The notes below the pieces were generated by a model. That model worked only from the letters and a program-made list of their open reading frames with translations. It did no database searches and was not told the DNA's origin. From an uncultured Prevotellaceae bacterium (GTDB taxonomy: Bacteria; Bacteroidota; Bacteroidia; Bacteroidales; Muribaculaceae), in contig ONIY01000005.1 of NCBI GenBank assembly GCA_900318065.1, positions 1-64,000 on the forward strand: 64,000 nucleotides of DNA, written 5' to 3'. Positions 2,128-33,866 of this stretch are shown in pieces. How positions within the stretch are numbered: the first letter of the stretch is position 1; the number at the start of each line of letters is the position of its first letter. Made by a program: the position numbers and the translations under genes.

Positions 2128-2245
2128 ATAATTCATAATGCACAATGCACAATTGATCTCGACTGCTCGATAGTTCGACCGCTCGATTGCTCTACTGAAA
2201 ACTGAAAACTGACTACTGATAACTGACAACTGATAACTGATAACT
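2128..2245 (+). repeat. Composite heptamer/octamer tandem arrays upstream of the CoA-transferase gene
   Basis: Three abutting arrays fill the spacer between the aminotransferase and the CoA-transferase. Bases 2128-2155 are four 7-mers of the ATAATGC/ACAATTG type. Bases 2158-2189 are four 8-mers of the CTCGATTG type. Bases 2194-2245 are seven 7-mers of the ACTGATA type plus ACT. The last array ends 2 nt before the ATG at 2248, so it occupies the place where a ribosome binding site would lie. Units differ in their last two or three bases but the period is kept. Confidence 0.9.
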
Positions 2246-2247
2246 AT

Positions 2248-3540
2248 ATGAATTACATGAGTGCCGACGAGGCTGTTCGCCTTGTCAAAAGTGGCGACCA
2301 CATCTATTGCATGGGAAGTACAGCGATACCCGTTGTGCTACAGAGTGCACTGGCACGTCGTGCCAGCGAGCTGCGTGATGTAGTGGTCTATTCGGCGTTT
2401 AATGTGCCTTATGGCGAGTGCCCATTGTGCAAACCTGAGTATAAAGACTCGTTTATCACCAAGAGCCTCTTCCTCAGTGGCGACCAGCGCAAGTGGGTGG
2501 CTCAGGGCTACGGAGAGGTGATCCCTGCTTTCTTGGGAGAGATTCCTTTCTTGTTCCGCAGCAAGCAGTTACCTCTTGATGTTACCTTCCTTAACTGCTC
2601 GCCTCCCGACAAGGATGGCTATTGCAGTTATGGAATGAGCGCCGACTTGGCGTTCAGCGCTGTGGAAATGTCGAAGACTATCATCGCGCAAATCAACGAC
2701 AGCATGCCTTACCTGTGTGGCGCTGCCAAGATTCACGAGAGCCAGATTGCCGCTGCAGTGCGTTGCGACGAGCCACCGCTGGCAATGGAATTTGGGGAGT
2801 CGACTCCCATTGAGAGCGCTATTGGCGGCTTTATCGCTGCCGAGATCCCCGATGGTGCAACGCTGCAGATTGGTGTGGGTGGAATCCCCAACGCTGTGCT
2901 TGCAGGCATCAAGAACCACAAGCACCTGGGACTGCACACCGAGGCAATGACCGACGGCGTGGTGCGCCTGATGGAAGAGGGTGTTATTGACAACAGTCTC
3001 AAGAAAATTCACCCTGGAAAGAGTGTGGCAAGTCTAGCACTTGGTTCAAAGCGCATGTATGACTTCCTCGACTATAACGAGGATGTGGAATTCTATGATG
3101 TGGCTTATACCAACGACCCGCAGATCATTCGTCAAAATCCTAAACCCATTGCCATCAACAGTGCTATTGAGGTGGACTTGACAGGACAGGTGTGTGCCGA
3201 CAGTATTGGAACGATGATCTTCTCGAGTGTGGGTGGTCAGCACGACTTTATGTATGGTGCTGCTCTCAACCCCGAGGGAAAGACTTTCATTGCGCTGCCA
3301 TCACGCACAGGCAAGGGTAAGAGCAAGATTGTGCCTACTCTCACCCCTGGCGCTGGCGTGGTGACCACTAGGTTCCAGACGCAGTATGTTGTAACCGAGC
3401 ATGGCATCGTCTACCTGCGCAACAAGAGCATGGCAGAGCGTGCACGCGCTCTCATCTCGATTGCTCACCCCGACGACCGAGAGGCACTAGAGCGTGCAGC
3501 CTACGAGCGCTTTGGCTACAGCTTCATGCGCTACAAGTAA
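2248..3540 (+). CDS. Acetyl-CoA hydrolase/transferase family CoA-transferase (4-hydroxybutyrate/butyrate CoA-transferase type)
   Basis: The 430-residue protein has the hallmarks of the AbfT/Cat-type CoA-transferase family: GVGGIPNAVL near residue 210, LHTEAMTDG with the expected catalytic glutamate at about residue 232, SAIEVDLTGQV near 305 and SVGGQHDFMYGA near 330. Length matches the roughly 430-440 residues of 4-hydroxybutyrate or butyryl-CoA:acetate CoA-transferases. It would exchange CoA between an acyl-CoA and a free acid such as acetate. Placed between the aminotransferase and ptb-buk, it offers a second way to release the acyl group made by IorAB. The exact acyl substrate is not determinable. 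ATG at 2248 is used; a second in-frame ATG lies three codons later. Confidence 0.85.
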   Translation: MNYMSADEAVRLVKSGDHIYCMGSTAIPVVLQSALARRASELRDVVVYSAFNVPYGECPLCKPEYKDSFITKSLFLSGDQRKWVAQGYGEVIPAFLGEIPFLFRSKQLPLDVTFLNCSPPDKDGYCSYGMSADLAFSAVEMSKTIIAQINDSMPYLCGAAKIHESQIAAAVRCDEPPLAMEFGESTPIESAIGGFIAAEIPDGATLQIGVGGIPNAVLAGIKNHKHLGLHTEAMTDGVVRLMEEGVIDNSLKKIHPGKSVASLALGSKRMYDFLDYNEDVEFYDVAYTNDPQIIRQNPKPIAINSAIEVDLTGQVCADSIGTMIFSSVGGQHDFMYGAALNPEGKTFIALPSRTGKGKSKIVPTLTPGAGVVTTRFQTQYVVTEHGIVYLRNKSMAERARALISIAHPDDREALERAAYERFGYSFMRYK

Positions 3541-3560
3541 GGCAATGCAGTATCCTAACA

Positions 3561-3590
3561 AGAAAAGCGTCTCAATCGAGACGCTTTTCT
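3561..3590 (+). terminator. Rho-independent terminator after the CoA-transferase gene
   Basis: A perfect 13-bp stem (AGAAAAGCGTCTC paired with GAGACGCTTTTCT) closes a 4-nt loop and is followed by a T-rich tract. It lies 20 nt after the stop of the CoA-transferase and ends the plus-strand ior operon. Confidence 0.9.
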
Positions 3591-3643
3591 TATATTTTGG
3601 AATGAACAAAGCAGAGTGTTACCACATCATACTGATTCTTAAT

Positions 3644-3720
3644 ACTCTGTACTCTGTGCTCTGTACTCTGTACTCTGTGCTCTGTACTCTGTACTCTGTA
3701 CTCTGTACTTTATACTTTGT
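3644..3720. repeat. Tandem heptamer array (ACTCTGT), 11 units
   Basis: Eleven consecutive 7-bp units: seven ACTCTGT, two GCTCTGT, one ACTTTAT and one ACTTTGT. It occupies the convergent spacer between the CoA-transferase terminator and the stop codon of buk at 3732. Since 7 is not a multiple of 3, this is not a coding repeat. Confidence 0.93.
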
Positions 3721-3731
3721 CTCTTGTCCTT

Positions 3732-4793
3732 TTACTTGTATTCCTTAGCTTCGCGCTTGCCTTTAAGCACGGCAGCGGCGTTGCCAGCCAGAGCACCCAT
3801 CTCGTCTTCGCCAGGGAAGCAGTAGGTGGGAGCAAGGAAGTCGATGCGCTTGCGCAGCTCGCCAGTGAGGTAATCGCTGTGTGCCATTCCACCGGTGAGG
3901 AGGATGGCGTCAATCTTACCGCACAGTACAGCACTCTCGGCAGCAATCTGCTTAGCCACATGATAAATCATGGCGTCGAGGACAGTCTTGGCGTGCTTGT
4001 CACCATTGTTGATGCGCTCCTCAATTTCCATGAGGTCGGTAGTGCCCAGGTGAGCGTTCAATCCACCCTTGCCGGTGATCATCTTGAGAATTTCTTCCTT
4101 AGTATACTTGCCACTGAAGCAGAGTCTTACGAGGTCGGCAGCGGGAACTGTACCGGCGCGCTCGGGAGTGAATGGGCCTTCACCATCGAGTGCGTTAGGA
4201 GCATCAACAGCAACGCCCTTCTCGTGGGCGGCTACCGAGATACCTCCACCCAAGTGGCAGATGATGAGGTTCATCTCCTCATATTTCTTGCCAATCTCAC
4301 GGGCAAAGCGGCGTGCAATAGCCTTTTGGTTAAGTGGATGCCAAATGCTCACGCGCTTGATCTCGGGGATACCGCAGATGCGAGCATAGTCATTCAACTC
4401 GTCAACAACAACGGGGTCGGCGATGAAACTGCGGCAACCGGGAATTTGCTGAGCAATCTTGTGGGCAATGAGGCAGCCCAGGTTGCAGGCGTGCTCGCGA
4501 GTAGCATTGCGAGTGTCCTCAAGCATTTTCTCGTTAATCTCATATACGCCACCAGGAACGGCTTTGCCAAGACCTCCACGGCCAATGACCGCCTTAAAGT
4601 TGAAGTCTACATTGGTGACCTTGATCTCGTTCATTACAAGGTTGTAACGGAAATCAAACTGGTCAAGAACAGACTTATATGGAGCCAGCTCCTCGGGTTT
4701 GTGACGAATAGAGCGAAGCAGCAATGGGGTCTCACCCTCGTAAACGGCAAACTTAGTTGAAGTTGATCCTGGATTGATAACAAGTATACGCAT
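3732..4793 (-). CDS. buk: Butyrate kinase (branched-chain/short-chain acid kinase)
   Basis: A 353-residue acetokinase-family (ASKHA fold) kinase. It begins with VINPGSTSTKFAVYE, the family's N-terminal phosphate-binding motif, has GRGGLGKAVPGGVYEI near residue 72, CHLGGGISVAAHE near 180 and LTGGMAHSDYL near 300. The length fits butyrate kinases (about 355) rather than acetate kinase (about 400). It transfers phosphate from an acyl-phosphate to ADP, giving ATP and the free acid. The ptb gene lies 47 nt upstream on the same strand, the classical ptb-buk order. Butyrate, isobutyrate, isovalerate or phenylacetate may be the product; the linked ior genes favour branched or aryl acids. Confidence 0.93.
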   Translation of the reverse strand: MRILVINPGSTSTKFAVYEGETPLLLRSIRHKPEELAPYKSVLDQFDFRYNLVMNEIKVTNVDFNFKAVIGRGGLGKAVPGGVYEINEKMLEDTRNATREHACNLGCLIAHKIAQQIPGCRSFIADPVVVDELNDYARICGIPEIKRVSIWHPLNQKAIARRFAREIGKKYEEMNLIICHLGGGISVAAHEKGVAVDAPNALDGEGPFTPERAGTVPAADLVRLCFSGKYTKEEILKMITGKGGLNAHLGTTDLMEIEERINNGDKHAKTVLDAMIYHVAKQIAAESAVLCGKIDAILLTGGMAHSDYLTGELRKRIDFLAPTYCFPGEDEMGALAGNAAAVLKGKREAKEYK

Positions 4794-4840
4794 AGTTGTT
4801 TGTTGTATATTTTAAGTAATGTGTAATAGGGTTGTTTTAA

Positions 4841-5746
4841 TTAGATAGCCGATGCTACTGCAAGGCTGTAGAACTTCGACTCGATGCTGTCGCCACGAGA
4901 GGGGAGTACTACAGGAACCTTGGCGCCCTGGAGCAAGCCAGCAGTTTGGGCATGGCACAGCAGGGTGATGGTTTTGTAGAACACGTTGCCGCTCTCTATC
5001 TCGGGGAAGAGCACTGCGTCGGCCTCGCCATTGATGGGCGAGTTGATACCCTTGTGGTGCATGCTCTCATAGCACAAAGATGTCTTCAGGTCGAGAGGAC
5101 CGTCTACGATGCAGTTGCCAAACTCGCCATTGGCGGCTTTCTCTTTGATGATCACATAGTCGCCAGTGCAGGGGAAGTGACGCTCGTCAACTTTCTCTGA
5201 GCAGTGGATGAGCGAGATCTTGGGTTGCTCAATGTGAAGGGCGTGAGCAATCTTGGTCACATACTTCACTTGCTCAATGCGCTGGTCAACGGTGGGGCAT
5301 GGAATAACGGCGGCATCGGTAAAGAGCAGCAGGCGCTGCAGCTCAGGAATGTCGGCTACGGTAACGTGAGTGAGCACGTTGCCCTTGGGAAGAATTCCGG
5401 TCTCTTTGTTGAGAACTGCGCGAAGAAGGTTGTCGGTGTTCAACAAGCCCTTCATCAGCACGTTGGCACGGTCTTCACGAACCTCGGCAACAGCCTTGGC
5501 AGCAGCGTCGTCGCGGTCGCTGGCATCGATGATGCTGAACTCGCTCTTGTACTGAGCAAGACGCTCGTCGGCCTCAATCTCCTGGCGGCAGCCAACGAAT
5601 GTCACGGTGATAATACCTGCCTCGAGGGCTTTAAGCACGGCACTGCGAGTAACATCATCCTCGGCCCATACTACTGCTACGCGGCTTTTTGTTCCCTTAC
5701 TTGCAAGATGAGCGGTGAGCTCATCAAAATTCTTGATACTTGGCAT
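4841..5746 (-). CDS. ptb: Phosphate butyryltransferase
   Basis: A 301-residue member of the phosphate acetyl/butyryltransferase family. The C-terminal stretch QGAKVPVVLPSRGDS followed by ESKFYSLAVA is the conserved phosphate/CoA-binding end of this family, and the length matches Ptb (about 300) better than Pta (330 or more). It converts acyl-CoA plus phosphate to acyl-phosphate and CoA, supplying the downstream butyrate kinase. It is the first gene of a two-gene minus-strand operon with its own promoter (5806-5813), divergent from the hydrogenase gene. Acyl specificity is inferred only from context. Confidence 0.92.
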   Translation of the reverse strand: MPSIKNFDELTAHLASKGTKSRVAVVWAEDDVTRSAVLKALEAGIITVTFVGCRQEIEADERLAQYKSEFSIIDASDRDDAAAKAVAEVREDRANVLMKGLLNTDNLLRAVLNKETGILPKGNVLTHVTVADIPELQRLLLFTDAAVIPCPTVDQRIEQVKYVTKIAHALHIEQPKISLIHCSEKVDERHFPCTGDYVIIKEKAANGEFGNCIVDGPLDLKTSLCYESMHHKGINSPINGEADAVLFPEIESGNVFYKTITLLCHAQTAGLLQGAKVPVVLPSRGDSIESKFYSLAVASAI

Positions 5747-5805
5747 GTTTTTTATTAAAAAAGATTGTTTTTGGTTATGTGTATTATCAGTTAGTTTTTG
5801 TGGTG

Positions 5806-5813
5806 CAAAGGTA
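5806..5813 (-). promoter_or_regulatory. Bacteroidetes -7 promoter element for ptb-buk
   Basis: The minus strand reads TACCTTTG, a match to TAnnTTTG, about 60 nt before the ptb start. No clear TTTG -33 element is at the expected distance. Confidence 0.6.
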
Positions 5814-5915
5814 GTGATTATTTTTGTATATTAAAACATTGTGTTGTCTTTTTTTGATGGTTATAAAACATATAAATTTTTAGAGAACTTCCTGTAATGT
5901 GTAATTTATTTTTAC

Positions 5916-5923
5916 TAACTTTG
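5916..5923 (+). promoter_or_regulatory. Bacteroidetes -7 promoter element for hydA
   Basis: TAACTTTG matches TAnnTTTG and predicts a leader of about 85-90 nt before the hydA ATG at 6017. It is divergent from the ptb promoter about 100 bp away, so the fermentation and hydrogenase genes share one AT-rich regulatory region (5747-6016). Confidence 0.6.
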
Positions 5924-6016
5924 TAGTTCAAAGTTCTGATAGATTTTATCTATTGCTCAAGATTGTTGAATTACAACTAATTACCCATTTTTTTCATAAT
6001 AAATTGCTTGCCACTC

Positions 6017-11803: not shown

Positions 11804-11812
11804 ATATTTATT

Positions 11813-12067
11813 AGTTATCAGTTATCAGTTATCAGTTATCAGTTTTCAGTAGAGCAGTTGAGTAGTGGAGTAGTTGAGTAGTTGAGTAGTTGAGTAGTTT
11901 TTTCTAGTATCTCTAGATTTTCTAGAAGTTCTAGTATTTCTAGTTTCTCTAGTTCAAAGCGCCACAGGCACGATTCCCGATCCTCGCTCCCGGCTCTTTC
12001 CACGTTCCACGTTCCACGTTCCACGCGCCGCAGGCGCTACTTAACACTTAACCCTTAACACTTACCC
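11813..12067 (-). repeat. Mosaic of 7-, 8- and 9-bp tandem arrays filling the hydE-hydG spacer
   Basis: Listed in plus-strand order: five AGTTATC-type 7-mers (11813-11847), six AGTAGTTG-type 8-mers (11853-11900), six TCTAGnnnn 9-mers (11903-11955), four CACGTTC-type 7-mers (12001-12028) and four CTTAACA-type 7-mers (12040-12067). On the coding strand the ACTGATA-type array comes last before the hydG start, as it does upstream of the CoA-transferase at 2248. The TAA stop of hydE (12055-12057) lies inside the CTTAACA array. Confidence 0.9.
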
Positions 12068-13098
12068 CCGTGGTCTCCTCGTCCCCAGTCTATGTGGTAG
12101 CCTATGGTGGCGAGTTGGGTTTCTAGTTGCGCAATGCCTTCGGCGGCTTCGGCGTTGGTGCTGGCTTTGCCGTCGTAGAGGGCGTAGCGCGCTCTCACGT
12201 CGCTTGGCGAGAGGTTGGGCATCACCACGTTGGCGCCAGCCATTATGCCCATTGTCCTGCCCTGTGGGTCTATCGTGTTCAGTGCCGTGGTGCTCGGTAT
12301 CAGGGCGTGGGGGAACATCAGCCTGAAGATGCTGTAGAGCCGACATGTGAGGTGGGCGCTCCCGGTGGGGTAGTGCCCAAGCGGTGTCTCGTGCTGCGGC
12401 ACAAAGGGTCCCAGGCCTATCATCTCGGGCTCAAACTGCTCAATGAACTCTATGTCCTCGACAATGTTGTCGAGCGACTGCCACGGACTCCCCACCATGA
12501 TGCCGGTGCCAACCTGGTAGCCCAGCTCTTTGAGCCACACGAGGCACTGCAGGCGGTTCTTGAGCGACATCTCGGCAGGGTGAAGCCTGCTGTAGTGCTC
12601 GGCGTTATGGCTCTCGTGGCGAAGCAGGTAACGGTCGGCACCCGCCTGTTTAAGAGCCGCATACACCTCCCTGGGCCACTCGCCCAGCGACAGCGTAATG
12701 GCGCAGTCGTTCCACCGCTGTCTTATCTCGCCCACCAGGTCTACAAGCCACGGCGCCTTGTCGCGGGGCAGCTCGCCGCTCTGCAGCACAAAGGTCCTGA
12801 AACCCAGGTCATAGCCCTGCTGGCAGCATTGCAGCACCTGATGGGTGGTGAGCAGGTATCGCTCCACCGCCGTGTTGCTCTTGCGTATGCCGCAGTACAG
12901 GCAGTCGTTGCGGCACACGTTGGCGAGCTCCACCAGTCCGCGCACAAAGATACCCTTGCCAAACACCTCGTCGCCCACCTCACGAGCCTGCTCATGCAAG
13001 TGGGCAACAACGCCTTTGTCGTCACACGCCAGCAGCGCCTTGTAGCCACCGCTGTCCAAGTGACGCTCCGCACGCAAGATGTCAACAAGTTCTCTCAT
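12055..13098 (-). CDS. hydE: [FeFe]-hydrogenase maturation radical SAM enzyme HydE
   Basis: Start chosen at ATG 13098 (MRELVDILRAE, 347 residues); longer in-frame readings run into the promoter. The radical SAM motif is CRNDCLYC (CX3CX2C) near residue 55, in a biotin synthase-like barrel that continues with GFRTFVLQSGE and GVGTGIMVGSPWQS-like segments of the HydE/PylB family. HydE takes part in building the [2Fe] precursor of the H-cluster with HydG. It is the first gene of the minus-strand operon hydE-hydG-hydF. A promoter only about 9 nt upstream implies a nearly leaderless mRNA. The last residues (GGKC) and stop are encoded in a heptamer array. Confidence 0.92.
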   Translation of the reverse strand: MRELVDILRAERHLDSGGYKALLACDDKGVVAHLHEQAREVGDEVFGKGIFVRGLVELANVCRNDCLYCGIRKSNTAVERYLLTTHQVLQCCQQGYDLGFRTFVLQSGELPRDKAPWLVDLVGEIRQRWNDCAITLSLGEWPREVYAALKQAGADRYLLRHESHNAEHYSRLHPAEMSLKNRLQCLVWLKELGYQVGTGIMVGSPWQSLDNIVEDIEFIEQFEPEMIGLGPFVPQHETPLGHYPTGSAHLTCRLYSIFRLMFPHALIPSTTALNTIDPQGRTMGIMAGANVVMPNLSPSDVRARYALYDGKASTNAEAAEGIAQLETQLATIGYHIDWGRGDHGGKC

Positions 13099-13106
13099 GC
13101 AACTTG

Positions 13107-13138
13107 CAAAATTACAAAACCCCAACAACTACTCCAAA
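13107..13138 (-). promoter_or_regulatory. Promoter of hydE-hydG-hydF
   Basis: On the minus strand TTTG (13138-13135), 20 nt, then TAATTTTG (13114-13107): a full match to the Bacteroidetes housekeeping promoter. The -7 element ends only 8 nt before the hydE ATG, so the leader would be very short. Confidence 0.75.
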
Positions 13139-13187
13139 TCTTTTCCATCAAATTTTCAAATTAAAATTTTTTCGTATCTATAAATTG

Positions 13188-13516
13188 GTGGAATGTGGAA
13201 CGTGGAACGTGGAACGGCGGTGAGGGAACAGTTTTAAGTGTTAAGTGTGAAATGTTAAGTGTTAAGTAGCACCTGCAGTGCTGGTTAATGCATAATGTAC
13301 AATTCATAATGCACAATTCAGCCAGAGGCTGACCCTATGTATAACCCCCAGTACCGTTTCAGAGCGAGCGACAGCGAGCAGAAACTCTTCCCTCTCCCCT
13401 CTCCCCTCTCCCTTTAAATCTCACCCCTGTCTTCCATAAACAATAAACTATAAACCATAAACCAAGAAGTGCCACTGTCTTCCATAAACAATAAACTATA
13501 AACCATAAACCAAGAA
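13188..13516. repeat. Gene-free spacer built from several heptamer arrays and a 42-bp direct repeat
   Basis: The 454-bp spacer 13099-13552 holds no gene. It contains GTGGAAC-type 7-mers (13188-13215), TTAAGTG-type 7-mers (13234-13268), ATAATGC/ACAATTC 7-mers (13292-13319), CCTCTCC 7-mers (13391-13411) and two exact 42-bp copies, at 13427-13468 and 13475-13516, each made of the anchor CTGTCTTCC plus ATAAACC-type 7-mers. Confidence 0.9.
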
Positions 13517-14184: not shown

Positions 14185-14967
14185 ATGAACCGTAAAAAAA
14201 CGATACTATTCCTGCTCGCCATTGTGGCGATAGTGCTCATGAGCGATGCATGCTTTGCGCAGGATGCCGCGCAGACTGTCGTGCCCGAGCAATCGTTGAC
14301 CGAGAAGCTTTACTTCTGGTTTAAGGACCACATGAACTACTGGACCATCATCCTGCTGATGGCGATAGAGAGCTCTATAGTTCCGCTACCCAGCGAGGTG
14401 GTGGTGCCGCCAGCAGCCTATTTCTCGCTGCAGGCCAACAGCAGCCTTGACTTCTGGCTCGTGATAGCCACCGCCACAGTGGGCGCTTATCTTGGCTCGG
14501 CGATAAACTACGGCCTCTCTATGCTCATTGGCCGACCAGTGTTTTATGCCTTTGCCGACAGTAAAGTGGGGCATCTTTTCTTGCTCAACCGTGAGAAACT
14601 GGAACATGCCGAGGACTATTTCAGGCGCAAAGGTTCAATTTCAATCTTCTTCGGACGACTGTTGCCAGCTGTTCGACACCTCATCTCGATTCCCGCTGGC
14701 CTGTCTCGCATGAACTTTGGCACCTTCAGCTTCTATACTGTGCTTGGCGCAGGAATATGGAACGTGGTCCTGGCATTGCTGGGCTACCTGCTCTACCGCA
14801 TCGTCCCCGACGACAACCAGTTCTTTGCCCAGCTTGAGCACTACAGCCACTATCTCAAAATTGCTGGCTTCATCTTGCTAGCCGTCGCAATAATTTTCAT
14901 CATCCATAAGGTGAAGAAAAACAAGAAGAAAAACAAGAAGAAAAAAGCGCAAGACAATAATACTTAA
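14185..14967 (+). CDS. DedA family (SNARE-associated) inner-membrane protein
   Basis: A 260-residue membrane protein. A hydrophobic N-terminal segment with a possible signal-peptide end (SDACFAQDA, near residue 25) precedes the DedA core: ESSIVPLPSEVVVPP near residue 62, GAYLGSAINYGLS near 100 and FFGRLLPAVRHLISIPAG near 155, the conserved FxRxxPxxR region. The C-terminus is strongly basic and lysine-rich (residues about 240-257), probably cytoplasmic. DedA/TMEM41-type proteins act as lipid scramblases or flippases (undecaprenyl-phosphate or phospholipid recycling). The stop codon is formed by the first unit of the heptamer array that separates it from rpe. Confidence 0.9.
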   Translation: MNRKKTILFLLAIVAIVLMSDACFAQDAAQTVVPEQSLTEKLYFWFKDHMNYWTIILLMAIESSIVPLPSEVVVPPAAYFSLQANSSLDFWLVIATATVGAYLGSAINYGLSMLIGRPVFYAFADSKVGHLFLLNREKLEHAEDYFRRKGSISIFFGRLLPAVRHLISIPAGLSRMNFGTFSFYTVLGAGIWNVVLALLGYLLYRIVPDDNQFFAQLEHYSHYLKIAGFILLAVAIIFIIHKVKKNKKKNKKKKAQDNNT

Positions 14968-15030
14968 TACTTAACACTTAACACTTAACACTTAACACTT
15001 CACACTTAACACTTCACACTTAACCCTTAT
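14961..15030 (+). repeat. Tandem heptamer array (CACTTAA), exactly ten units
   Basis: Ten 7-bp units: two TACTTAA, five CACTTAA, two CACTTCA and a final CCCTTAT. The array includes the dedA stop codon (14965-14967) and ends one base before the rpe ATG at 15032, so it is the whole intergenic region. Confidence 0.95.
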
Positions 15031-15031
15031 C

Positions 15032-15725: not shown

Positions 15726-15793
15726 CACCCGCAAAACAGAAATCAGTAGTGTTTAGAGGTAAAACAAAACTGAGAACTGAACTTGGTTTATGT

Positions 15794-15919
15794 TTTATGG
15801 TTTATAGTTTATGGAAGACAGTGCTGAGATTAAGCGCAATGCAATCACTAAAACTGATAACTACTTTACTATTCTACTACTCAACTATTTTACTGAAAAC
15901 TGACAACTGACTACTGATT
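15794..15919. repeat. Heptamer arrays between rpe and tRNA-Ser
   Basis: TTTATGG-type 7-mers at 15794-15814 followed by GGAAGACAG (overlapping at 15813-15821) are the reverse complement of the anchor-plus-array repeated at 13427 and 13475. ACTGAAA/ACTGACA/ACTGACT/ACTGATT 7-mers at 15892-15919 repeat the family seen at 2194 and 11813, again preceded by ACTACTCA-type sequence. Confidence 0.85.
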
Positions 15920-15939: not shown

Positions 15940-16026
15940 GGAAAGATGCCGGAGTGGTCGATCGGGGCGGTCTCGAAAACCGTTAACCCCTTACGGGGTT
16001 CCAGGGTTCGAATCCCTGTCTTTCCG
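15940..16026 (+). tRNA. tRNA-Ser (anticodon CGA)
   Basis: The 87-nt sequence folds as a class II tRNA. Acceptor stem GGAAAGA pairs with TCTTTCC, discriminator G at 16026. The anticodon stem GCGGT/ACCGT closes the loop CTCGAAA, giving anticodon CGA for codon UCG. A long variable arm (TAACCCCTTACGGGGTT) is typical of serine tRNAs, and the T arm contains GGTTCGAATCC. CCA is not encoded. The 3' end from base 16010 on is duplicated at 16192. Confidence 0.95.
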
Positions 16027-16062
16027 CAACGAGCAATGAAACTGGATGAGCGCAAGCCCATC
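16010..16062 (+). repeat. Direct repeat copy 1, tRNA-Ser 3' end plus flank
   Basis: These 53 bp comprise the last 17 bases of tRNA-Ser and 36 bases of downstream sequence. They are exactly repeated at 16192-16244, 182 bp away. Confidence 0.93.
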
Positions 16063-19160: not shown

Positions 19161-19272
19161 AATTAGTGTCAAGTAGCGCCTTAGGCGCGGGGAAACGTGG
19201 AACGTGGAAGGTTTTAAGTTGCGCCTAAGGCGCGGGAATCGGGGATGGGTGATCGAGGATCGGTGAGGGAAT

Positions 19273-19418
19273 TGTAGGGACAACGCGTGCGTTGTCCGCC
19301 TGCGGATTAATCAATGCGCGCTTGCGTTAGATACTCTTTACACATACCCAGCGGACAAGGCACGCCTTGTCCCTACAATAATAAGAACCACAAATTAAAC
19401 AGATTAATCGGATTTTTA
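19273..19418. repeat. Palindromic dispersed element, copy 1 (right module truncated)
   Basis: The left module 19273-19376 begins TGTAGGGACAA and ends TTGTCCCTACA, with hairpins GGACAACGC/GCGTTGTCC and GGACAAGGC/GCCTTGTCC at its ends but a centre different from other copies. The right module stops after about 35 bp. Confidence 0.88.
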
Positions 19419-19441
19419 GGGTGATGCACAAGGTGAAAATT

Positions 19442-19672
19442 GCGTCAATGTAGGGACAACGCGTGCGTTGTCCGAAAACAGCGAAAGTGCTGACTACCAA
19501 ACACCTGCCTCCAGCGGACAAGGCACGCCTTGTCCCTACAATAATAAAAACCACAAATTAAACAGATTAAACGGATTTTATAATCTTCTGAATCGCAGAA
19601 CAATAAAAAAATAGAGAATCTGTTTAATCTGAACAATCTGTGGTTTATTTAATTGCAACCGCCTTGCCTGCG
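19442..19672. repeat. Palindromic dispersed element, copy 2 (complete, two modules)
   Basis: Left module 19449-19540 has terminal inverted repeats TGTAGGGACAA/TTGTCCCTACA. Right module 19548-19647 is AT-rich with inverted ends AAACCACA/TGTGGTTT. Similarity to the copy at 33867 continues through about 25 bp beyond the right module. The whole spacer 19106-19791 contains no gene; besides the terminator and copies 1 and 2 it holds heptamer arrays. Confidence 0.9.
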
Positions 19673-19693
19673 GTGTGAGGATTGTGGATGGGG

Positions 19694-19770
19694 GATAGAG
19701 GATAGAGGATAGGCTTGCACAACTTCACACTTCACACTTCACACTTCACACTTCACCCTTAACCCTTACC
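19694..19770. repeat. Heptamer arrays GATAGAG and ACTTCAC
   Basis: Three GATAGAG-type units (19694-19714) are followed by five ACTTCAC and two CCTTAAC/CCTTACC units (19722-19770), ending 21 bp before the dus stop codon. A GATCGAG-type run also occurs at about 19225-19252. Confidence 0.9.
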
Positions 19771-28527: not shown

Positions 28528-29112
28528 ATGGAATCGTCAAGAATTATAGCAATAACAGGTGGAATAGGGGCAGGAAAGAGTGTTGTTGCCTCTATCTTGC
28601 GTCATGCCGGCTTTGGAATCTACGACTGCGACATGCGAGCCAAGTTGCTCATGAACACATCGCCTGCCATCAGGCAAGCGCTCGTGGGGAGGTTTGGACC
28701 AGAGGTCTACAGCGAGAACGGCGACCTGGATAGGGCAGTGCTCAGCAGCATTATTTTCAATGACAAGGATGCATTGGCGTTTGTCAACTCGGTAGTGCAT
28801 CCGGCTGTGCGTGACGATATCGTGCAGTGGAGTGTGCAGCAGGACAAGGCGCCGGCTTTTGTTGAGACAGCTATCCTTCAGGAGAGTGGCTTGGATGCTA
28901 TGGTCGATGAGGTGTGGATTGTGACAGCGCCGGTAGAAGTTCGCATTGAGCGAGTGATCAAGCGCAATGCCACCACGCGTGAGCGCGTGCTGGAGCGCAT
29001 CCACTCCCAGCGAGACCAATTCACGGGCATCAACAAGAAGATTGTTGAGATTGTCAACAATGGTATTGTGCCATTGCTCCCGCAAGTGATGAGGGCAGTG
29101 AACTTGACTTGA
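28528..29112 (+). CDS. coaE: Dephospho-CoA kinase
   Basis: A 194-residue P-loop kinase. IIAITGGIGAGKSVVAS carries the Walker A loop (residues 11-18). YDCDMRAK near 33 matches the conserved DxxA/D region of CoaE, and the lid region has VIKRNATTRERVLERIHSQ near 145. It phosphorylates dephospho-CoA, the last step of CoA synthesis. It starts 32 nt after ybbR and ends at a bidirectional terminator shared with the convergent tsf gene. Confidence 0.94.
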   Translation: MESSRIIAITGGIGAGKSVVASILRHAGFGIYDCDMRAKLLMNTSPAIRQALVGRFGPEVYSENGDLDRAVLSSIIFNDKDALAFVNSVVHPAVRDDIVQWSVQQDKAPAFVETAILQESGLDAMVDEVWIVTAPVEVRIERVIKRNATTRERVLERIHSQRDQFTGINKKIVEIVNNGIVPLLPQVMRAVNLT

Positions 29113-29141
29113 TAAAGGTATAACCAATTAATAATAAAAGA

Positions 29142-29175
29142 ATTAGGGCATCAATACTGTTGTTGATGCCCTAAT
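29142..29175. terminator. Bidirectional terminator between coaE and tsf
   Basis: A 13-bp perfect stem ATTAGGGCATCAA / TTGATGCCCTAAT with an 8-nt loop lies between convergent genes, with A-rich sequence on the coaE side. Confidence 0.8.
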
Positions 29176-29207
29176 CACTTGATTTAGAATCAAAATTTAC
29201 TAACCAA

Positions 29208-30203
29208 TTAGTCGGCGTTGAGATTTACACGCTTCAGGTTGATAGCAACGAGACCCTTTTGAGCCTTGTCAAGGAACTGGGCGATGGTCATGCCCTTCTC
29301 CTCGCTAGCCTCATACTCTTGCTCCATGAGGACGTTCTCTTTGTAGAACTTCTCCATGCGACCCTTAACGATGTTCTGGATCATCTGCTCAGGCATGCTC
29401 TTGAGCTTAGCCTCGGCGGTAGCAGCCATCAGGTTCTTAGCCTCCTCAACTTGCTCGGGAGTCATGTAACCCTTGCGAACTGCCTCGTCCTGATGCTCCT
29501 CGGTAGCGCAGTAGTAGGGGTTGAAACCAGCCTTCTTCAAGGCGTTCTCAACGGCCTTCTGTACCTGCTCGCTCTTGGTCTTCTCAATGGCGATGCTAGT
29601 CTCCTCGTCAATAATATTCTGAGGAATCTGCTCACGGCTAGTGGCAGCAGGCTTCATTGCTGCAACCTGCATGGCAACTGCCTTACCAATCTCCTCGCTA
29701 ACTGGCTCGTTGAAAGCAACCAGTGTAGAGAGTTTCTTGTTGAAGTGGTTATAAGCAGCAATACCATTGCCCTCGAGGCACTCATAAGCACCAAGTTCCA
29801 TCTTCTCACCTGTGATACCGCTCAGAGCAGTGATGTGCTCGGCAACGGTAGCACCGTCGAAGCTATAGTTCTTGAGCTCGTCGAGAGTCTGAACCTTAGC
29901 GGCAACAGCCTCGTCAAGAATGCGGTTGGCAAGAGCGACAAACTTCTCGGTACCAGCCACTGGCTCGGTCTCGCACTTCAGAGCTACGATAGCACCAAAG
30001 TTACCTTCAACCTTGCACTTGGCAATACCCTCGGCAGCAGTGCGGTCGCCACGCTTTGCAGCGATAGCCTGACCACGCTTGCGGATGAGTTCCACTGCCT
30101 TGTCCATATCGTTCTCGGCCTCGATGAGAGCTTTCTTGCAGTCGACCATACCAGCGTTGGTGATCTCACGCAATTTCTTTATGTCATTAATAGAAACAGC
30201 CAT
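29208..30203 (-). CDS. tsf: Translation elongation factor Ts
   Basis: A 331-residue EF-Ts with the family start INDIKKLREITNAGMVDCKKALIEA and the TDFVAR-like region altered as in Bacteroidetes (LKCETEPVAGTEKFVALA near residue 74). The C-terminal half has the longer dimerisation region usual for this phylum (E. coli has 283). It catalyses GDP release from EF-Tu. It is 63 nt behind rpsB on the same strand, the conserved rpsB-tsf pair. Confidence 0.96.
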   Translation of the reverse strand: MAVSINDIKKLREITNAGMVDCKKALIEAENDMDKAVELIRKRGQAIAAKRGDRTAAEGIAKCKVEGNFGAIVALKCETEPVAGTEKFVALANRILDEAVAAKVQTLDELKNYSFDGATVAEHITALSGITGEKMELGAYECLEGNGIAAYNHFNKKLSTLVAFNEPVSEEIGKAVAMQVAAMKPAATSREQIPQNIIDEETSIAIEKTKSEQVQKAVENALKKAGFNPYYCATEEHQDEAVRKGYMTPEQVEEAKNLMAATAEAKLKSMPEQMIQNIVKGRMEKFYKENVLMEQEYEASEEKGMTIAQFLDKAQKGLVAINLKRVNLNAD

Positions 30204-30266
30204 AATTGATTTCTATAAGTTTTAAATTATTAAGTGGTTAATCTCTTTCTTTATAAAAAACTCTGA

Positions 30267-31145
30267 TTACTCAGCTTTAGGTTCCTCGGTGGCAGGAGCT
30301 TCCTCCTGGGCGTGGGCTTCTTCCTGAGCAGGTGCCTCGGCAGCGGGAGCCTCTTCCTTGGCATCCTCGGTAACGCGGGCGCGACGAACGCGAGTTCGGC
30401 GTGGTTTAGCCTCGCCTTCACCCTCGGCAGCCTCGTCCTTGTTGTCTATCTTCTCAATCTTGCGCTCCTCGATGCCTTCCTTGATAGCCTCGCAAACGGT
30501 GTTCAAGATGATGTCGATCGACTTTGAAGCATCGTCATTGGCGGGGATTACGAAGTCTACATTCTCGGGATTGCTGTTGGTGTCAACGATACCAAACACG
30601 GGGATACCCAGACGATTGGCCTCGGCAACGGCAATGTGCTCTTTGAGTACGTCAACAACAAAGAGTGCCGATGGCAGACGGTTCAGGTCGGCGATAGAGC
30701 CAAGGTTCTTCTCAAGCTTTGCACGCTGGCGAGTGATTTGAAGGCGCTCACGCTTCGACATGTTGTCGAAGGTGCCGTCGGTTGTCATCTTGTCGATGGC
30801 AGCCATCTTCTTCACAGCCTTGCGAATTGTTGGGAAGTTGGTGAGCATACCGCCTGGCCAGCGCTCAATAACGTAAGGCATGCCAACCGAAGTAGCGCGG
30901 TCACATACCACTTGTTTAGCTTGCTTCTTGGTGGCAACAAAGAGAACCTTCTTGCCTTCCTTAGCAATGTTCTTGAGAGCAACGGCAGCTTCTTCAAGCT
31001 TAGCCTGAGTTTTGTAAAGGTCGATGATGTGAATGCCATTACGCTCCATGAAGATGTAGGGAGCCATAGCAGGATTCCACTTACGTTTCAGGTGACCAAA
31101 GTGACAGGTTGCGTCGAGCAGTTGGTCAAAATTTGGTGTTTGCAT
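30267..31145 (-). CDS. rpsB: 30S ribosomal protein S2 with acidic C-terminal extension
   Basis: A 292-residue S2. The core (residues about 1-225) starts NFDQLLDATCHFGHLKRKWNPAM and includes IHIIDLYKTQAKLEEA and ERWPGGMLTNFPTIRK. The last 60 or so residues form a low-complexity tail: a basic patch (KPRRTRVRRARV), then alternating Ala/Glu/Pro segments (EEAPAAEAPAQEEAHAQEE). Such tails occur in some Bacteroidetes S2 proteins, but this one is long. The gene follows rplM-rpsI on the minus strand after a 187-bp spacer and precedes tsf. Confidence 0.96.
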   Translation of the reverse strand: MQTPNFDQLLDATCHFGHLKRKWNPAMAPYIFMERNGIHIIDLYKTQAKLEEAAVALKNIAKEGKKVLFVATKKQAKQVVCDRATSVGMPYVIERWPGGMLTNFPTIRKAVKKMAAIDKMTTDGTFDNMSKRERLQITRQRAKLEKNLGSIADLNRLPSALFVVDVLKEHIAVAEANRLGIPVFGIVDTNSNPENVDFVIPANDDASKSIDIILNTVCEAIKEGIEERKIEKIDNKDEAAEGEGEAKPRRTRVRRARVTEDAKEEAPAAEAPAQEEAHAQEEAPATEEPKAE

Positions 31146-31332
31146 TTTAAAAATTTGATTTGTTTACGTTCAACTTAAAACAATCGCATAGTAGCCATGC
31201 CCTGCGGGCTTTTTTTTCTCCAATTTGTTTTTTATGCCGCCAGGCAAGTGAGTCTATGCAATTTGGATACTAAACTCTGTTTTCTTAGTGAAGTTCCAGA
31301 GCAAGACGATGTTGAATCTCTTCGATACAATA
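31146..31332 (-). promoter_or_regulatory. rpsI-rpsB spacer, possible S2 leader
   Basis: The 187-nt spacer upstream of rpsB is long for this operon and contains potential hairpins on the transcribed strand: GCCCGCAGGGC preceded by an A8 run, and GCATGGCTACTATGC. Seen on the plus strand the first is a GC stem followed by T8, an oddly antisense terminator shape. No -7 promoter element is convincing. An autoregulatory leader is a guess. Confidence 0.3.
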
Positions 31333-31719
31333 TTAACGCTTGCTGAACTGGAAACGCTTGCGAGCCTTGGGCTGACCGGGTTTCTTGCGCTCTACGGCAC
31401 GTGGGTCGCGAGTCATGAAACCTTGCTTGCGCAGGGCGCTCTTGTCCTCGGCATTGATCTTCACCAGGGCGCGAGCGATAGCCAGGCGCAGAGCCTCGGC
31501 TTGTCCCTTGTAACCACCACCAATCAGGTTAACCTTGATGTTGTACTTCTCGGTTGCCTCGAGAGTGGTGAGGGGCTGCTTAACGATGAATTGAAGAATT
31601 GGAGATGGAAAATATTCTTCAAGTTTACGCTTGTTGATTGTGATTTCGCCATTTCCCTCGCTAACGTATACACGTGCGATAGCTGCTTTACGACGACCTA
31701 CTGCATTAATTTGTTCCAT
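31333..31719 (-). CDS. rpsI: 30S ribosomal protein S9
   Basis: A 128-residue S9 with INAVGRRKAAIARVYVSEGNG at the start and the basic C-terminus KKPGQPKARKRFQFSKR, whose tail reaches the P site of the ribosome. Lengths and motifs are standard. It lies 12 nt behind rplM in the usual pair. Confidence 0.97.
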   Translation of the reverse strand: MEQINAVGRRKAAIARVYVSEGNGEITINKRKLEEYFPSPILQFIVKQPLTTLEATEKYNIKVNLIGGGYKGQAEALRLAIARALVKINAEDKSALRKQGFMTRDPRAVERKKPGQPKARKRFQFSKR

Positions 31720-31731
31720 ACTTCCAATCGA

Positions 31732-32211
31732 TTATTTAAGTTTGTTGATATCAATTACTTTGGGTTGCTGAGCCTCGTGTGGATGGTTCTCACCGTTATA
31801 GATGTAAACGTTGTTGAGAATCTTAGCACCAAGCTTGTTCTTGGGAAGCATGCCCTTAATCACGTGGAGGAACAAGGGGTGCTTGCCAGCCTTAACGTGC
31901 TTGTTGAGAGACTTCTTCTGAAGTATGGCAGGAGTCGCATAACGCTGACCACCAGGATAGCCGGTATAGCTAACGTAGGTGCGGTCGTCCCACTTTTTGC
32001 CAGTGAGCTTAACCTTATCGGCGTTGATGATAATAACGTTGTCACCACAATCTACATGTGGAGTGAAGCTGGGTTTATACTTTCCGCGCAAGATTTTCGC
32101 TACTTTTGCGCACAAGCGACCCAGTACTTGATCGGTAGCATCTACTACTACCCATTCTTTCTGTACGTCTTCCTTGCGGATAGAGACGGTCTTGTAACTT
32201 AAAGTGTTCAC
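31732..32211 (-). CDS. rplM: 50S ribosomal protein L13
   Basis: A 159-residue L13. NTLSYKTVSIRKEDVQKEWVVVDATDQVLGRL is the Bacteroidetes form of the N-terminus, followed by HVDCGDNVIIINADKVKLTG and KHPLFLHVIKGMLPKNKLG. The start codon is GTG at 32211; no ATG lies nearby in frame, and homologues begin at the same position with M-x-TLSYKT. It is first in the minus-strand cluster rplM-rpsI-rpsB-tsf, preceded by a structured leader. Confidence 0.96.
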   Translation of the reverse strand: MNTLSYKTVSIRKEDVQKEWVVVDATDQVLGRLCAKVAKILRGKYKPSFTPHVDCGDNVIIINADKVKLTGKKWDDRTYVSYTGYPGGQRYATPAILQKKSLNKHVKAGKHPLFLHVIKGMLPKNKLGAKILNNVYIYNGENHPHEAQQPKVIDINKLK

Positions 32212-32331
32212 TTTTTAAAATCCTGATTAAAAATTAATTAAATCTTCAACAGCGCACACGATGATACGGCCAAATATCACACTCTGGCGCACCGCTGAAA
32301 TTATCTTGGATATAATCGGCGTGCAAAGGTA
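32212..32331 (-). promoter_or_regulatory. rplM promoter and structured leader, candidate autoregulatory element
   Basis: Minus-strand TACCTTTG (32331-32324) with an ATTG -33 element 19 nt upstream gives a leader of about 100-105 nt. In it TTCAGCG pairs with CGCTGTTGA around a GTGCGCC/TGTGCGC region, and TGATA/TATCA closes a small inner hairpin. Such a leader before an L13 operon suggests feedback control by L13, as known for ribosomal leaders in other bacteria. The remaining part of the gap to 32522 shows nothing further. Confidence 0.5.
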
Positions 32332-32522
32332 CAACTTATATTATTAATAGCAATAGATTTAAGATGCCAAAACGCACCTAAATCAGCCAAAATTAAGAAA
32401 CATTAACCCAATTAACATTTCTTAAAGGGCGCTTGATGGCAAAAAGGTGTGAAATACAGTGTTTTGAGTCATCTAAACCATGAAGAAAACACATCATGAA
32501 ACCTATTTTTAGCCAGCGAGAC

Positions 32523-33683
32523 TCATTGCTGCTTGCCGGCAGTCTTATTTTCCTTTTTCCTGGTCTTCTTTATGGTCCTTTTCTTGGCATAGAGAGGGTT
32601 GGGCTTGTGGAGCACATACTCGCTGTAGTAGCTGATGATTAGCGTGGTGAGTGGCAGTGCAATAATTAGTCCCACAAAGCCAAGGACAAATCCCCATATC
32701 GACAGAGACAGGAACACTAAGGCAGGATTCAGGCCCATCTGCTGCTTCATGATCAAGGGGATTAGCACCAGGTCTTGGATAACCTGGCAGATGCAGTAGG
32801 CGGCAAAGGTCCAGCCAAAGAGATACCAGAAGCTCTGTCCGGTGTCGACCGAGGCCACCAGGCACAGGAAGGCTGCGATGGGGAAAGAGATGAGCTGCAG
32901 GTAGGGCACCATGTTAAGCACGCCAATGAAGAGTCCAAACACTATTGCCATGGGCAAGCCTATGATAGAGAACTCGATGGCGAATATTATGCCCACAAAG
33001 AGCGACACCAGTGCCTGGCCACGGAAGTAGCGGCTCATGGTTTGCTCCACGTCGCGCATCACTTTGAAGCTGATGCGGCGATAGCGAGGTGGTATGGCAG
33101 CCTTGAAGCCCACGGTGATTTTGTCATAGTCGAGCAGGATGAAGAACATGTACATGAGCACCAGCAGCACGGTAACCAGGCCCAGCAGAAAGCTCATGGT
33201 TCCGCCCAGCACACTCCAGGTACCGCTTGCCACGTTGTTGAGTAGGTTCATCCATTGTTCCTTGGTGAGAATCTTCTGCCACTGGTTGAGGTCGAAGTTC
33301 TGCCTGAAGAAGTCCTGCACGGCATCGGGGATGTGAGGGATCTTGAACGAGGTCTTGGCATAGTTGGCGAGCATCTTGGTCATGTCGGTGAACTCATTGC
33401 CAATGTAGGGTATCAGCCACCACAGCACCACAGTTATCACAGCCACAGCCATCACCAGTGCCAGTATCGACGCAATGGCACGTCCCTTCATGTGAAGGAC
33501 CTTCATGAGCCATTCAACGAGCGGGTTGAGCATGTAGGCGAGCAGTCCGCCTATCACAAATGGCAGCAAGATTCCACTCAGGTAGTTGATAACATATATC
33601 ACTGCCACTATAGAGATTATTGCAATCACAATACGGGCAATGCGGTCAAGGTCATATCGTTTGCGGGTCTCTGTATTTTCCAT
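32523..33683 (-). CDS. AI-2E family transporter (PerM/YdiK-like permease)
   Basis: A 386-residue polytopic membrane protein with about eight hydrophobic segments (ARIVIAIISIVAVIYVINYL, ASILALVMAVAVITVVLWW, FLLGLVTVLLVLMYMFFILL and others). The C-terminal VIQDLVLIPLIMKQQMGLNPALVFLSLSIWG matches the family signature. Members include the AI-2 exporter TqsA and Na+/H+ antiporter-like UPF0118 proteins; substrate is unknown. The C-terminus is basic (KKRTIKKTRKKENK). It has its own promoter at 33708-33738. Confidence 0.9.
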   Translation of the reverse strand: MENTETRKRYDLDRIARIVIAIISIVAVIYVINYLSGILLPFVIGGLLAYMLNPLVEWLMKVLHMKGRAIASILALVMAVAVITVVLWWLIPYIGNEFTDMTKMLANYAKTSFKIPHIPDAVQDFFRQNFDLNQWQKILTKEQWMNLLNNVASGTWSVLGGTMSFLLGLVTVLLVLMYMFFILLDYDKITVGFKAAIPPRYRRISFKVMRDVEQTMSRYFRGQALVSLFVGIIFAIEFSIIGLPMAIVFGLFIGVLNMVPYLQLISFPIAAFLCLVASVDTGQSFWYLFGWTFAAYCICQVIQDLVLIPLIMKQQMGLNPALVFLSLSIWGFVLGFVGLIIALPLTTLIISYYSEYVLHKPNPLYAKKRTIKKTRKKENKTAGKQQ

Positions 33684-33707
33684 TTCGTCGTTTTTAGTTT
33701 AGTTTTG

Positions 33708-33738
33708 CAAAATTAATGCAAGCCGAGAGAAATACAAA
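33708..33738 (-). promoter_or_regulatory. Promoter of the AI-2E family gene
   Basis: On the minus strand TTTG (33738-33735), 19 nt, TAATTTTG (33715-33708), about 24 nt before the start codon. A good consensus match. Confidence 0.7.
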
Positions 33739-33789
33739 ATTAAAAACGAATTTTTTGGATTTTTATTTCCGAGGCGCAGCTTAATTTAA

Positions 33790-33866
33790 GTGGAACGTGG
33801 AAAGTGGAACGTGGAATGTGTGATGTGGGACGTGGAATGTGTGATGAGGGACGTGGGACGTGGAAT
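33790..33866. repeat. Tandem heptamer array (GTGGAAC), 11 units
   Basis: Eleven 7-bp units without interruption, GTGGAAC with variants such as GTGTGAT, GTGGGAC and GAGGGAC. It directly precedes the palindromic element copy 3. Confidence 0.93.

What the first reader, a model, noticed from the sequence alone, without database searches (positions are those of the whole stretch)
2128..33866. Intergenic spacers are built from short tandem arrays with a fixed 7-bp period but many different unit sequences
Seen: arrays at 2128-2245, 3644-3720, 11813-12067, 13188-13516, 14961-15030, 15794-15919, 19694-19770 and 33790-33866. Units include ACTGATA, ACTCTGT, CACTTAA, CACTTCA, GTGGAAC, ATAAACC, ATAATGC, GATAGAG and CCTCTCC, all exactly 7 bp; only a few arrays are 8 (AGTAGTTG, CTCGATTG) or 9 bp (TCTAGnnnn). 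Substitutions are common yet the period does not slip, e.g. 11 units in 77 bp at 3644 and 33790 and 10 units in 70 bp at 14961. Known: heptameric short tandemly repeated repetitive (STRR) sequences are described in cyanobacteria. Their presence as many sequence families in a Bacteroidales genome is striking and suggests a mechanism that copies by 7-nt steps.
Basis: partly seen in the sequence, partly recalled or inferred. Interest (0 to 1): 0.8.

Follow-up and report, generated by a model that had tools for sequence, protein, structure and literature searches.

The report
Seven-base repeats fill gene gaps
Many gaps between genes in this uncultured bacterium are filled with short repeats that mostly step by seven bases, use a small vocabulary that differs between close species, and run in opposite directions on either side of the gap's centre; the kind of repeat is known, but the vocabulary turnover and the direction rule look new.

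Summary
All eight listed places hold 7-bp arrays. In 829 kb of the genome, noncoding arrays number 150 at period 7, 36 at 8, 10 at 9, 45 at 14 (the double) and 0-5 at each other period from 4 to 13. But these are not many unrelated units: 8 unit clusters hold 174 of 193 arrays, and many sit in composite modules whose linkers are nearly confined to this genome among the genus samples. At the same gene junctions relatives have 0-118 bp without arrays, or heptads of another unit: recent gains with species dialects. Duplication in 14-bp blocks is visible too. Heptad repeats are known from cyanobacteria, Beggiatoaceae and some Bacteroidetes (PMC4679880). Most likely: slippage-type duplication seeded at gene edges, plus spread and homogenisation. 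Reverse transcriptases seem not needed.

The parts
2076..2247 (+). Composite spacer between an aminotransferase-like gene and a CoA-transferase-like gene: stop-side TAAGTGT-type units, AATGCAC array (2122-2153), 8-bp CTCGACTG-type stretch, TAACTGA array (2194-2245) ending 2 bp before the ATG. The orthologous junction in G011 has no spacer.
3643..3724 (+). ACTCTGT array, 11.9 copies, ending 7 bp from the 3' end of the butyrate kinase gene (minus strand); absent from the 100-bp G011 spacer
11804..12054 (-). hydE-hydG spacer. Read in the gene direction: TTAAGTG array, GCGCCTGCGGCGC palindrome, GTGGAAC array, 9-bp ACTAGAAAN array, 8-bp AACTACTC array, TAACTGA array, ATG of hydG. The stretch before hydG differs in each other genus member printed (in some, hydE is not upstream).
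13187..13513 (+). Composite: GTGGAAC, TTAAGTG, AATGCAC, CCTCTCC arrays and two copies of CCATAAACAATAAACTATAAACCATAAACC
14958..15029 (+). Pure CACTTAA array ending 2 bp before an ATG. G010 has TCTCTCC units at the same junction; G011 has 5 bp and G015 has none
15784..15919 (+). GTTTATG array, linker shared with other spacers, 8-bp ACTATTCT-type array, TAACTGA array pointing at tRNA-Ser (15940-16027)
19677..19767 (+). GAGGATA array, then CACTTCA array about 25 bp from the 3' end of a minus-strand ORF
33790..33867 (+). GTGGAAC array with 21- and 28-bp higher-order periods

Best explanation
These are lineage-specific intergenic heptad satellites. Short seeds at gene edges (AACTNNN in the leader before a start codon; stop-codon-containing units such as TAAGTNN after a stop codon) are expanded in place by slippage-type or unequal tandem duplication whose step is 7 bp or a multiple. 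Arrays, with the linkers and palindromes between them, are then spread to other gene junctions as composite modules and homogenised within each genome, so each species has its own vocabulary. Shown: the period, shared families, gain of length at junctions, different units at orthologous sites, confined variable columns, a 14-bp higher-order period and the strand polarity. Inferred: slippage as the duplication step, the seeds, the route of spread, selection keeping arrays out of genes, the reason for 7, and the cause of the polarity.
For: Period. Eight unit clusters hold 174 of 193 arrays. In 40 syntenic gene-pair comparisons with relatives (some junctions of this genome counted with two relatives), 6 have an array only in this genome, with median spacer 181.5 bp against 4.5 bp in the relative (0, 0, 4, 5, 100, 118 bp); 4 only in the relative, 2 in both, 28 in neither. 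The stretch before hydG ranges in genus members from no AACT heptads to about 14 units. Dialects: the NNN of AACTNNNAACT is GAT, GAC or GAA in 75 of 130 here, GAA or GAC in 26 of 36 in G009, AAT first (6 of 35) in G001. Substitutions are confined to particular columns (chi-square p 6e-35 for TAACTGA, 6.8e-48 for CATAAAC, weakest 0.0006 for AATGCAC). TAACTGA variants repeat at unit distance 2 (48 of 115, shuffled mean 30.5, max 42) and less than expected at distance 1 (27 of 148, mean 39, min 27), as when 14-bp blocks are duplicated. The gene's own stop triplet recurs at +7 in 14 of 40 stop-side arrays, +14 in 12, +21 in 9, +28 in 7; no other offset from 3 to 29 exceeds 4. Three linker or palindrome patterns: 36, 27 and 14 copies in 829 kb here, 0 or 1 in each of five genus groups, about 1.1 Mb together.
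Against: No event was observed and no strains of one species were compared. The polarity is not predicted by plain slippage. The same TAACTGA unit in several phyla (PMC4679880) fits recurrent local seeds poorly. The stop-codon register is partly expected, because an array full of stop codons lying over a gene end supplies the stop itself, and in relatives it is weak (of 18: +7 in 2, +14 in 4, +21 in 4, +3 in 3). Shared 4-unit variant strings between loci were only modestly raised and within the shuffled range (12 against mean 4.1, max 14; 14 against mean 6.7, max 17), and the 21-bp period of CATAAAC is within it too (11 of 20, mean 5.8, max 12), so block copying of whole arrays between loci is not proven.
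Confidence: 0.6

Rival explanations
1. Telomerase-like synthesis: a reverse transcriptase with an RNA template (like DRT10) adds heptads to broken 3' ends at gene junctions; a species-specific template would give dialects and the C-poor strand would run outward on both sides.
For: Geometry: the outward strand is C-poor on both gene edges in this genome. DRT10 makes tandem-repeat DNA from an ncRNA template (PMC12632851).
Against: Five genus genomes with many AACT heptad matches (G007 215, G008 71, G009 325, G011 99, G015 78) have no RVT_1 match; over 16 genus genomes rho is -0.34, p 0.20. Mixed variant units and a 14-bp higher-order period do not look like copies of one template. Limits: one Pfam model; drafts 83-99% complete.
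Confidence: 0.06
2. Selected regulatory elements: start-side arrays act in translation initiation and stop-side arrays in termination or insulation; units are kept by selection and dialects track a binding factor. This extends MacGregor's proposal.
For: Arrays often sit within a few bp of start or stop codons; 111 of 193 lie within 60 bp of one clear edge. AACT occurs in 46% of leaders in this genome and in genus relatives, 33% in four other class members, 27.5% in other Bacteroidales, 17% in Clostridia. In TAACTGA arrays the ACT core hardly varies.
Against: Orthologous junctions of close species can lack the array altogether; the position of the last AACT relative to ATG is broad; arrays also face stop codons and a tRNA gene.
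Confidence: 0.15
3. Spread by REP-associated tyrosine transposases (Y1_Tnp) acting on the palindromes, with arrays as passengers.
For: Palindromes GGACAAGGC-GCCTTGTCC, CGCAAGGC-GCCTTGCG and GCGCC-GGCGC are dispersed here; 6 Y1_Tnp loci in the genome; weak correlation over 61 genomes, rho 0.28, p 0.03, not corrected for kinship; four of the six genomes without Y1_Tnp have no AACT heptads.
Against: The other two genomes without Y1_Tnp have 78 and 29 AACT heptad matches, and two with 8 and 9 copies have none. Some arrays, such as 14958-15029, stand without a palindrome. The three Y1_Tnp loci looked at, of six, hold none of the seven tested patterns nearby.
Confidence: 0.12
4. Purely local replication slippage at each site, with 7 nt favoured by the polymerase (proposal of Mrazek et al. 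2007 as retold in PMC4679880).
For: Fixed period across unrelated units and across genomes.
Against: The same units recur at many loci in one genome and differ between close species; conserved linkers.
Confidence: 0.05
5. Assembly artefact of a metagenome-assembled genome.
For: The genus records named are titled as MAGs or uncultured isolates; array copy number may be misassembled. The only single-contig genome among the 61 of the genus (G076) has no AACT heptads and no period-7 array in 40 kb.
Against: 51 of 61 genus genomes hold AACTNNN heptads, and fragmented genomes without them exist too. A 5.51-Mb single-contig genome of another family (G282) has 37 noncoding period-7 arrays in 520 kb. 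Published genomes hold heptads (PMC4679880).
Confidence: 0.03

Closest known systems
TAACTGA direct repeats of marine Beggiatoaceae, cyanobacteria and five Bacteroidetes (MacGregor 2015, PMC4679880)
   Same: Same heptamer, intergenic, often just before a start codon and pointing toward it
   Different: Here it is one of about eight families in composite, two-armed spacers; other heptamers are common here but related ones were rare in the BOGUAY genome; units differ between close species
Short tandemly repeated repetitive (STRR) heptamers of cyanobacteria (name recalled; a passage of PMC4692102 mentions three tandem heptanucleotides in Calothrix)
   Same: Degenerate tandem heptanucleotides, dispersed, intergenic
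   Different: Other phylum; modular order with palindromes, 8- and 9-bp blocks, and strand polarity (whether STRR show these was not tested)
GGGAATC / GGGGA(C/T)T heptamers of Xanthomonas and Nostoc (PMC4692102, passages)
   Same: Enriched intergenic heptamers
   Different: G-quadruplex type; most families here lack long G runs, though GGGGATC is similar
REP/BIME elements (recalled)
   Same: Intergenic palindromes in mosaics
   Different: Tandem heptad arrays are the main feature here, and Y1_Tnp is not needed for AACT heptads in two genomes
DRT10 tandem-repeat cDNA / telomerase (PMC12632851, abstract and passages)
   Same: Short repeats; C-poor strand outward (telomere geometry recalled)
   Different: No RVT_1 match in several array-rich genomes

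Membership tests
TAACTGA repeats (MacGregor 2015) | Intergenic tandem TAACTGA units | tested here: met
   357 placements (219 + 138) of a 3-unit pattern with up to 3 mismatches against 0 for the backward control; 0 of the TAACTGA arrays inside a called ORF
TAACTGA repeats (MacGregor 2015) | Forward orientation just before start codons | tested here: met
   15 of 15 near-start TAACTGA arrays point to the gene; in IMG/VR contigs only 8 of 19 do
TAACTGA repeats (MacGregor 2015) | Related heptamers rare as direct repeats (BOGUAY genome) | tested here: not met
   Eight clusters of units; the 2015 paper itself notes mixed heptamers in Microcystis
STRR heptamers | Tandem degenerate heptanucleotides dispersed in intergenic DNA | tested here: met
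STRR heptamers | Occurrence in cyanobacteria, common descent with these | not testable with these tools
   No cyanobacterial genome was at hand as a centre; three accession look-ups found no record
REP/RAYT elements | Dispersed palindromes with a Y1_Tnp gene in the genome | tested here: met
REP/RAYT elements | Arrays depend on Y1_Tnp | tested here: not met
   Two of six genomes without Y1_Tnp have 78 and 29 AACT heptad matches; the other four have none
DRT10 / telomerase-like | Reverse transcriptase present where repeats are found | tested here: not met
   Five array-rich draft genomes without an RVT_1 match

The most novel reading that the evidence does not exclude
The spacers are double-ended repair scars: each gene-bearing DNA end was extended 3'-ward with C-poor heptads by a dedicated polymerase that does not match the RVT_1 model, then the two extended ends were joined mid-spacer, giving G-rich-then-C-rich order whatever the gene directions. 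That would be a bacterial telomere-like end extension recorded in ordinary gene gaps.
Probability: 0.08. Interest if true: 0.9.

Novelty: new variant of a known kind. Interest (0 to 1): 0.6.

Why it matters
Why bacterial tandem repeats favour 7 bp has been open since it was remarked on in 2007 (as retold in PMC4679880). A genus in which close species carry different heptads at the same gene junctions, with empty, seed-like and array states side by side, makes the question testable by plain comparison. The strand polarity gives any proposed mechanism a sharp prediction to meet. The arrays also change leaders and, at hydE, seem to supply the stop codon, so they may alter expression of ordinary genes within a genus.

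Tried and rejected
Reverse transcriptase as maker: not supported as a requirement. Y1_Tnp as sole driver: not supported. A strict ribosome register for AACT: not found; offsets are broad, with a mild peak at -9 in relatives. Fold-back origin with matching arms: of 31 edge pairs 3 are of one family, and a strong palindrome (9-bp stem) lies in the centre of 9 of 45 two-armed spacers (mean best stem 5.1 against 3.8 shuffled). A code for stop codons in all three frames: fits TAACTGA, CACTTAA and CATAAAC but not GTGGAAC, CCTCTCC or GGGGATC, from reading the units. Rfam at gathering threshold: only the tRNA in the window. BLAST of a TAACTGA array against plasmids gave nothing; low-complexity filtering may be the cause.

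Results against my reading. Spacers whose arrays all have one sign count as ordered trivially (14 of 42 in this genome, 6 of 16 in the fresh part, 5 of 13 in relatives), so the both-sign counts are the test; for relatives some shuffles also reach 8 of 8. Stop-edge polarity is weak in genus relatives pooled (20:10; start 32:5), and their skew after stop codons is smaller or mixed. 8-bp arrays at stop edges are 7:7, and adding 8-bp arrays gives one unordered spacer (33 of 34 with both signs). The AATGCAC family points 2 toward and 5 away. In IMG/VR contigs ordering is 6 of 8 with both signs, and the start edge is 8:11 for TAACTGA. In the distant genome G282 ordering is 1 of 3 with both signs and the start edge 6:4, though the stop edge is 13:1. 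Two other single-contig genomes of the class, G179 and G109, had no noncoding period-7 array in 80 and 40 kb although both have AACT matches. Some G282 stretches were chosen at AACT match positions. Family orientations were chosen after looking; the family-free test was made for that reason. ORF-calling bias was considered: at stop edges the favoured outward orientation of TAACTGA and CATAAAC has no stop codon, the opposite of what such a bias would give. Arrays inside called ORFs (22 of 193), ambiguous or far arrays (60 of 193) and arrays with equal G and C were left out of polarity counts, 16 of 193 arrays were unassigned. In this check I raised the artefact rival from 0.02 to 0.03 because I had left out G076.
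Full report
What was checked. TRF finds period-7 arrays at all eight places, and I read the sequences. In 454 kb of this genome, stretches with strong lag-7 similarity cover 52 per 1000 noncoding bases, lag 8 covers 11, lag 9 covers 3, and every other lag from 2 to 30 less than 4. One first-order Markov resample gave 1 period-7 array against 111. In 345 kb of fresh sequence the noncoding counts were 70 at period 7, 18 at 8, 5 at 9, 8 at 14 and 8 in all at the other periods from 4 to 13.

Who it is. The window lies in a draft genome of 97 contigs. A protein search with its HydG gave genus relatives titled Muribaculaceae, Prevotellaceae, Porphyromonadaceae or Bacteroidales bacterium, many from ruminant gut samples. 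The window's own record was not named. Gene identities near the arrays: HydG, HydE and butyrate kinase above the curated cut-offs; an aminotransferase-like, a CoA-transferase-like and an UptA/DedA-like protein below them.

A small vocabulary, not many. In 829 kb, 193 arrays have 53 distinct units (rotation and strand collapsed), and eight clusters hold 174: AACACTT (CACTTAA), AAACCAT (CATAAAC), AACGTGG (GTGGAAC), ATCCCCG (GGGGATC), AACTGAC (TAACTGA), ACCTCTC, AATGCAC and AAAGGAC. Printed spacers show recurring modules, for example GTTTATG array - GGAAGACAGTGGCGAGATTA - GGTGAGA array - 8-bp AACTACTC array - TAACTGA array, or stop codon - TTAAGTG array - GCGCCTGCGGCGC - GTGGAAC or GGGGATC array - 8-bp TCGAGCAA array. 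Seven linker and palindrome patterns were counted: here 37, 36, 27, 14, 10, 7 and 4 copies; in five groups of genus sequence (about 1.1 Mb together) 0 or 1 per group and pattern. So the composite modules look like a burst of this lineage, while simple heptad arrays are genus-wide.

Gain at gene junctions. In 40 syntenic gene-pair comparisons with relatives, an array was present only here in 6 (5 distinct junctions; median spacer 181.5 against 4.5 bp), only in the relative in 4, in both in 2, in neither in 28. At 14968-15031 this genome has CACTTAA units, G010 TCTCTCC units, G011 5 bp and G015 none. After another stop codon this genome has TAAGTGT-type units and G011 TAAGTAA-type units. The stretch before hydG in genus members runs from no AACT heptads to about fourteen AACTNNN units before the same ATG. 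I read this as a turnover series of empty, seed and array states with species dialects: NNN in AACTNNNAACT is mostly GAT, GAC, GAA here; GAA and GAC in G009; AAT first in G001; GAC, CAT, GAT in G011.

How units vary. Adjacent-unit mismatches fall in particular columns: in TAACTGA none in three columns and 52 of 90 in one; in CATAAAC 61 of 85 in one column. TAACTGA variants recur at unit distance 2 above every one of 500 shuffles, and at distance 1 no more than the shuffled minimum, so duplication blocks of 14 bp are likely; CATAAAC variants recur most at distance 3 (11 of 20, shuffled mean 5.8, max 12), which is suggestive only. This speaks for slippage or unequal exchange in multiples of 7 rather than one unit at a time.

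Polarity. Arrays within 60 bp of one clear gene edge carry more G than C on the strand running away from the gene: start edges 29:5, stop edges 66:6; in the fresh sequence 21:6 and 21:8. Within a spacer, G-rich arrays come before C-rich arrays on the top strand in 28 of 28 spacers with both signs (shuffled mean 10, maximum 20 in 2000; the other 14 of the 42 multi-array spacers have one sign only). This held for tandem (15 of 15), convergent (9 of 9) and divergent (4 of 4) neighbours; the switch lay at 0.14-0.89 of the spacer, mostly near the middle. I wrote down a prediction of at least 90% (notes) and ran it on fresh sequence: 10 of 10 with both signs (shuffled mean 4.0, max 8), 7 tandem and 3 divergent. 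Genus relatives gave 8 of 8. Outside the genus it weakens: viral contigs 6 of 8, the single-contig genome G282 1 of 3 although its stop edge is 13:1. In this genome array-free spacers show little skew after stop codons (-0.07 to +0.04), array spacers about +0.3 for the first 75 bp. A two-armed ancestral module spreading in either orientation would keep the order automatically, which is the simplest account of the rule in this genome; it does not explain the relatives, which nearly lack those modules.

How wide. Four AACTNNN units in a row occur in 51 of 61 genus genomes (up to 325 placements; backward control mostly 0 but up to 40 in G016) and in 123 of 296 phylum genomes from 61 of 140 genera, although in some of these the backward control also scores, presumably because other heptads exist. 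Local counts of equally spaced AACT triples peak only at 7 and its double. Sixteen other Bacteroidales loci (283 kb) and 33 mostly clostridial loci (559 kb) had no noncoding period-7 array. The single-contig genome G282 has 37 noncoding period-7 arrays and 19 of period 8 in 520 kb, G246 7 and 3 in 120 kb; G179, G109 and the genus member G076 none in 80, 40 and 40 kb.

Mechanism. Reverse transcriptase domains (PF00078) were not found in five array-rich genus genomes, so a telomerase-like or DRT10-like maker is unlikely. Y1_Tnp copies correlate weakly with heptads (rho 0.28), and two of six genomes without it have heptads. I therefore favour slippage-type duplication of gene-edge seeds, plus spread and homogenisation. 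That loops of five or more bases escape mismatch repair is recalled, not tested; it would explain periods above 4 but not 7 itself.

Known ground. MacGregor 2015 (PMC4679880; seen: abstract, passages, section 12) reports TAACTGA repeats in Beggiatoaceae, cyanobacteria and five Bacteroidetes, often before start codons, and retells the 2007 survey (Mrazek et al., not read) in which heptanucleotides were the commonest category in most genomes and polymerase slippage was proposed. PMC4692102 (passages) treats G-rich heptamers. PMC6749651 (passages) mentions heptamer-derived satellites; PMC4060949 (passages) surveys structure-related repeats. PMC12632851 (abstract, passages) is the DRT10 preprint. 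My searches listed no paper whose title or abstract start concerns species dialects or the polarity; the library is open-access only and the lists were capped.

Noticed in passing
window 19270-19550 and 33875-33965: REP-like palindromes (GTAGGGACAA[C/G]GC..GC[C/G]TTGTCC) and a dispersed AACCACAAATTAAACAGATTAATCGG-like repeat form a second layer of repeats; one form of the palindrome had no match in IMG/VR.
   Followed up: partly
window 12055-13128: The array appears to supply the stop codon of hydE here, changing the C-terminus relative to other species.
   Followed up: no
genomes G016, G044, G064 and G153: The backward control TCAANNN x4 scores well in some genomes, so another tetranucleotide-anchored heptad family may exist.
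   Followed up: no
L266-L340: 75 IMG/VR contigs carry TAACTGA arrays, and the same contigs hold 115 other noncoding period-7 arrays; their hosts were not determined.
   Followed up: partly
L126:6035-7113 (G011): Long arrays of GGGATGA and CACTAAT-type units near one gene of G011, units not among the 53 of this genome's sample.
   Followed up: no
window 11808-11953 read on the minus strand: Period falls 9, 8, 7 towards the hydG start codon in neighbouring ACT-containing arrays.
   Followed up: partly
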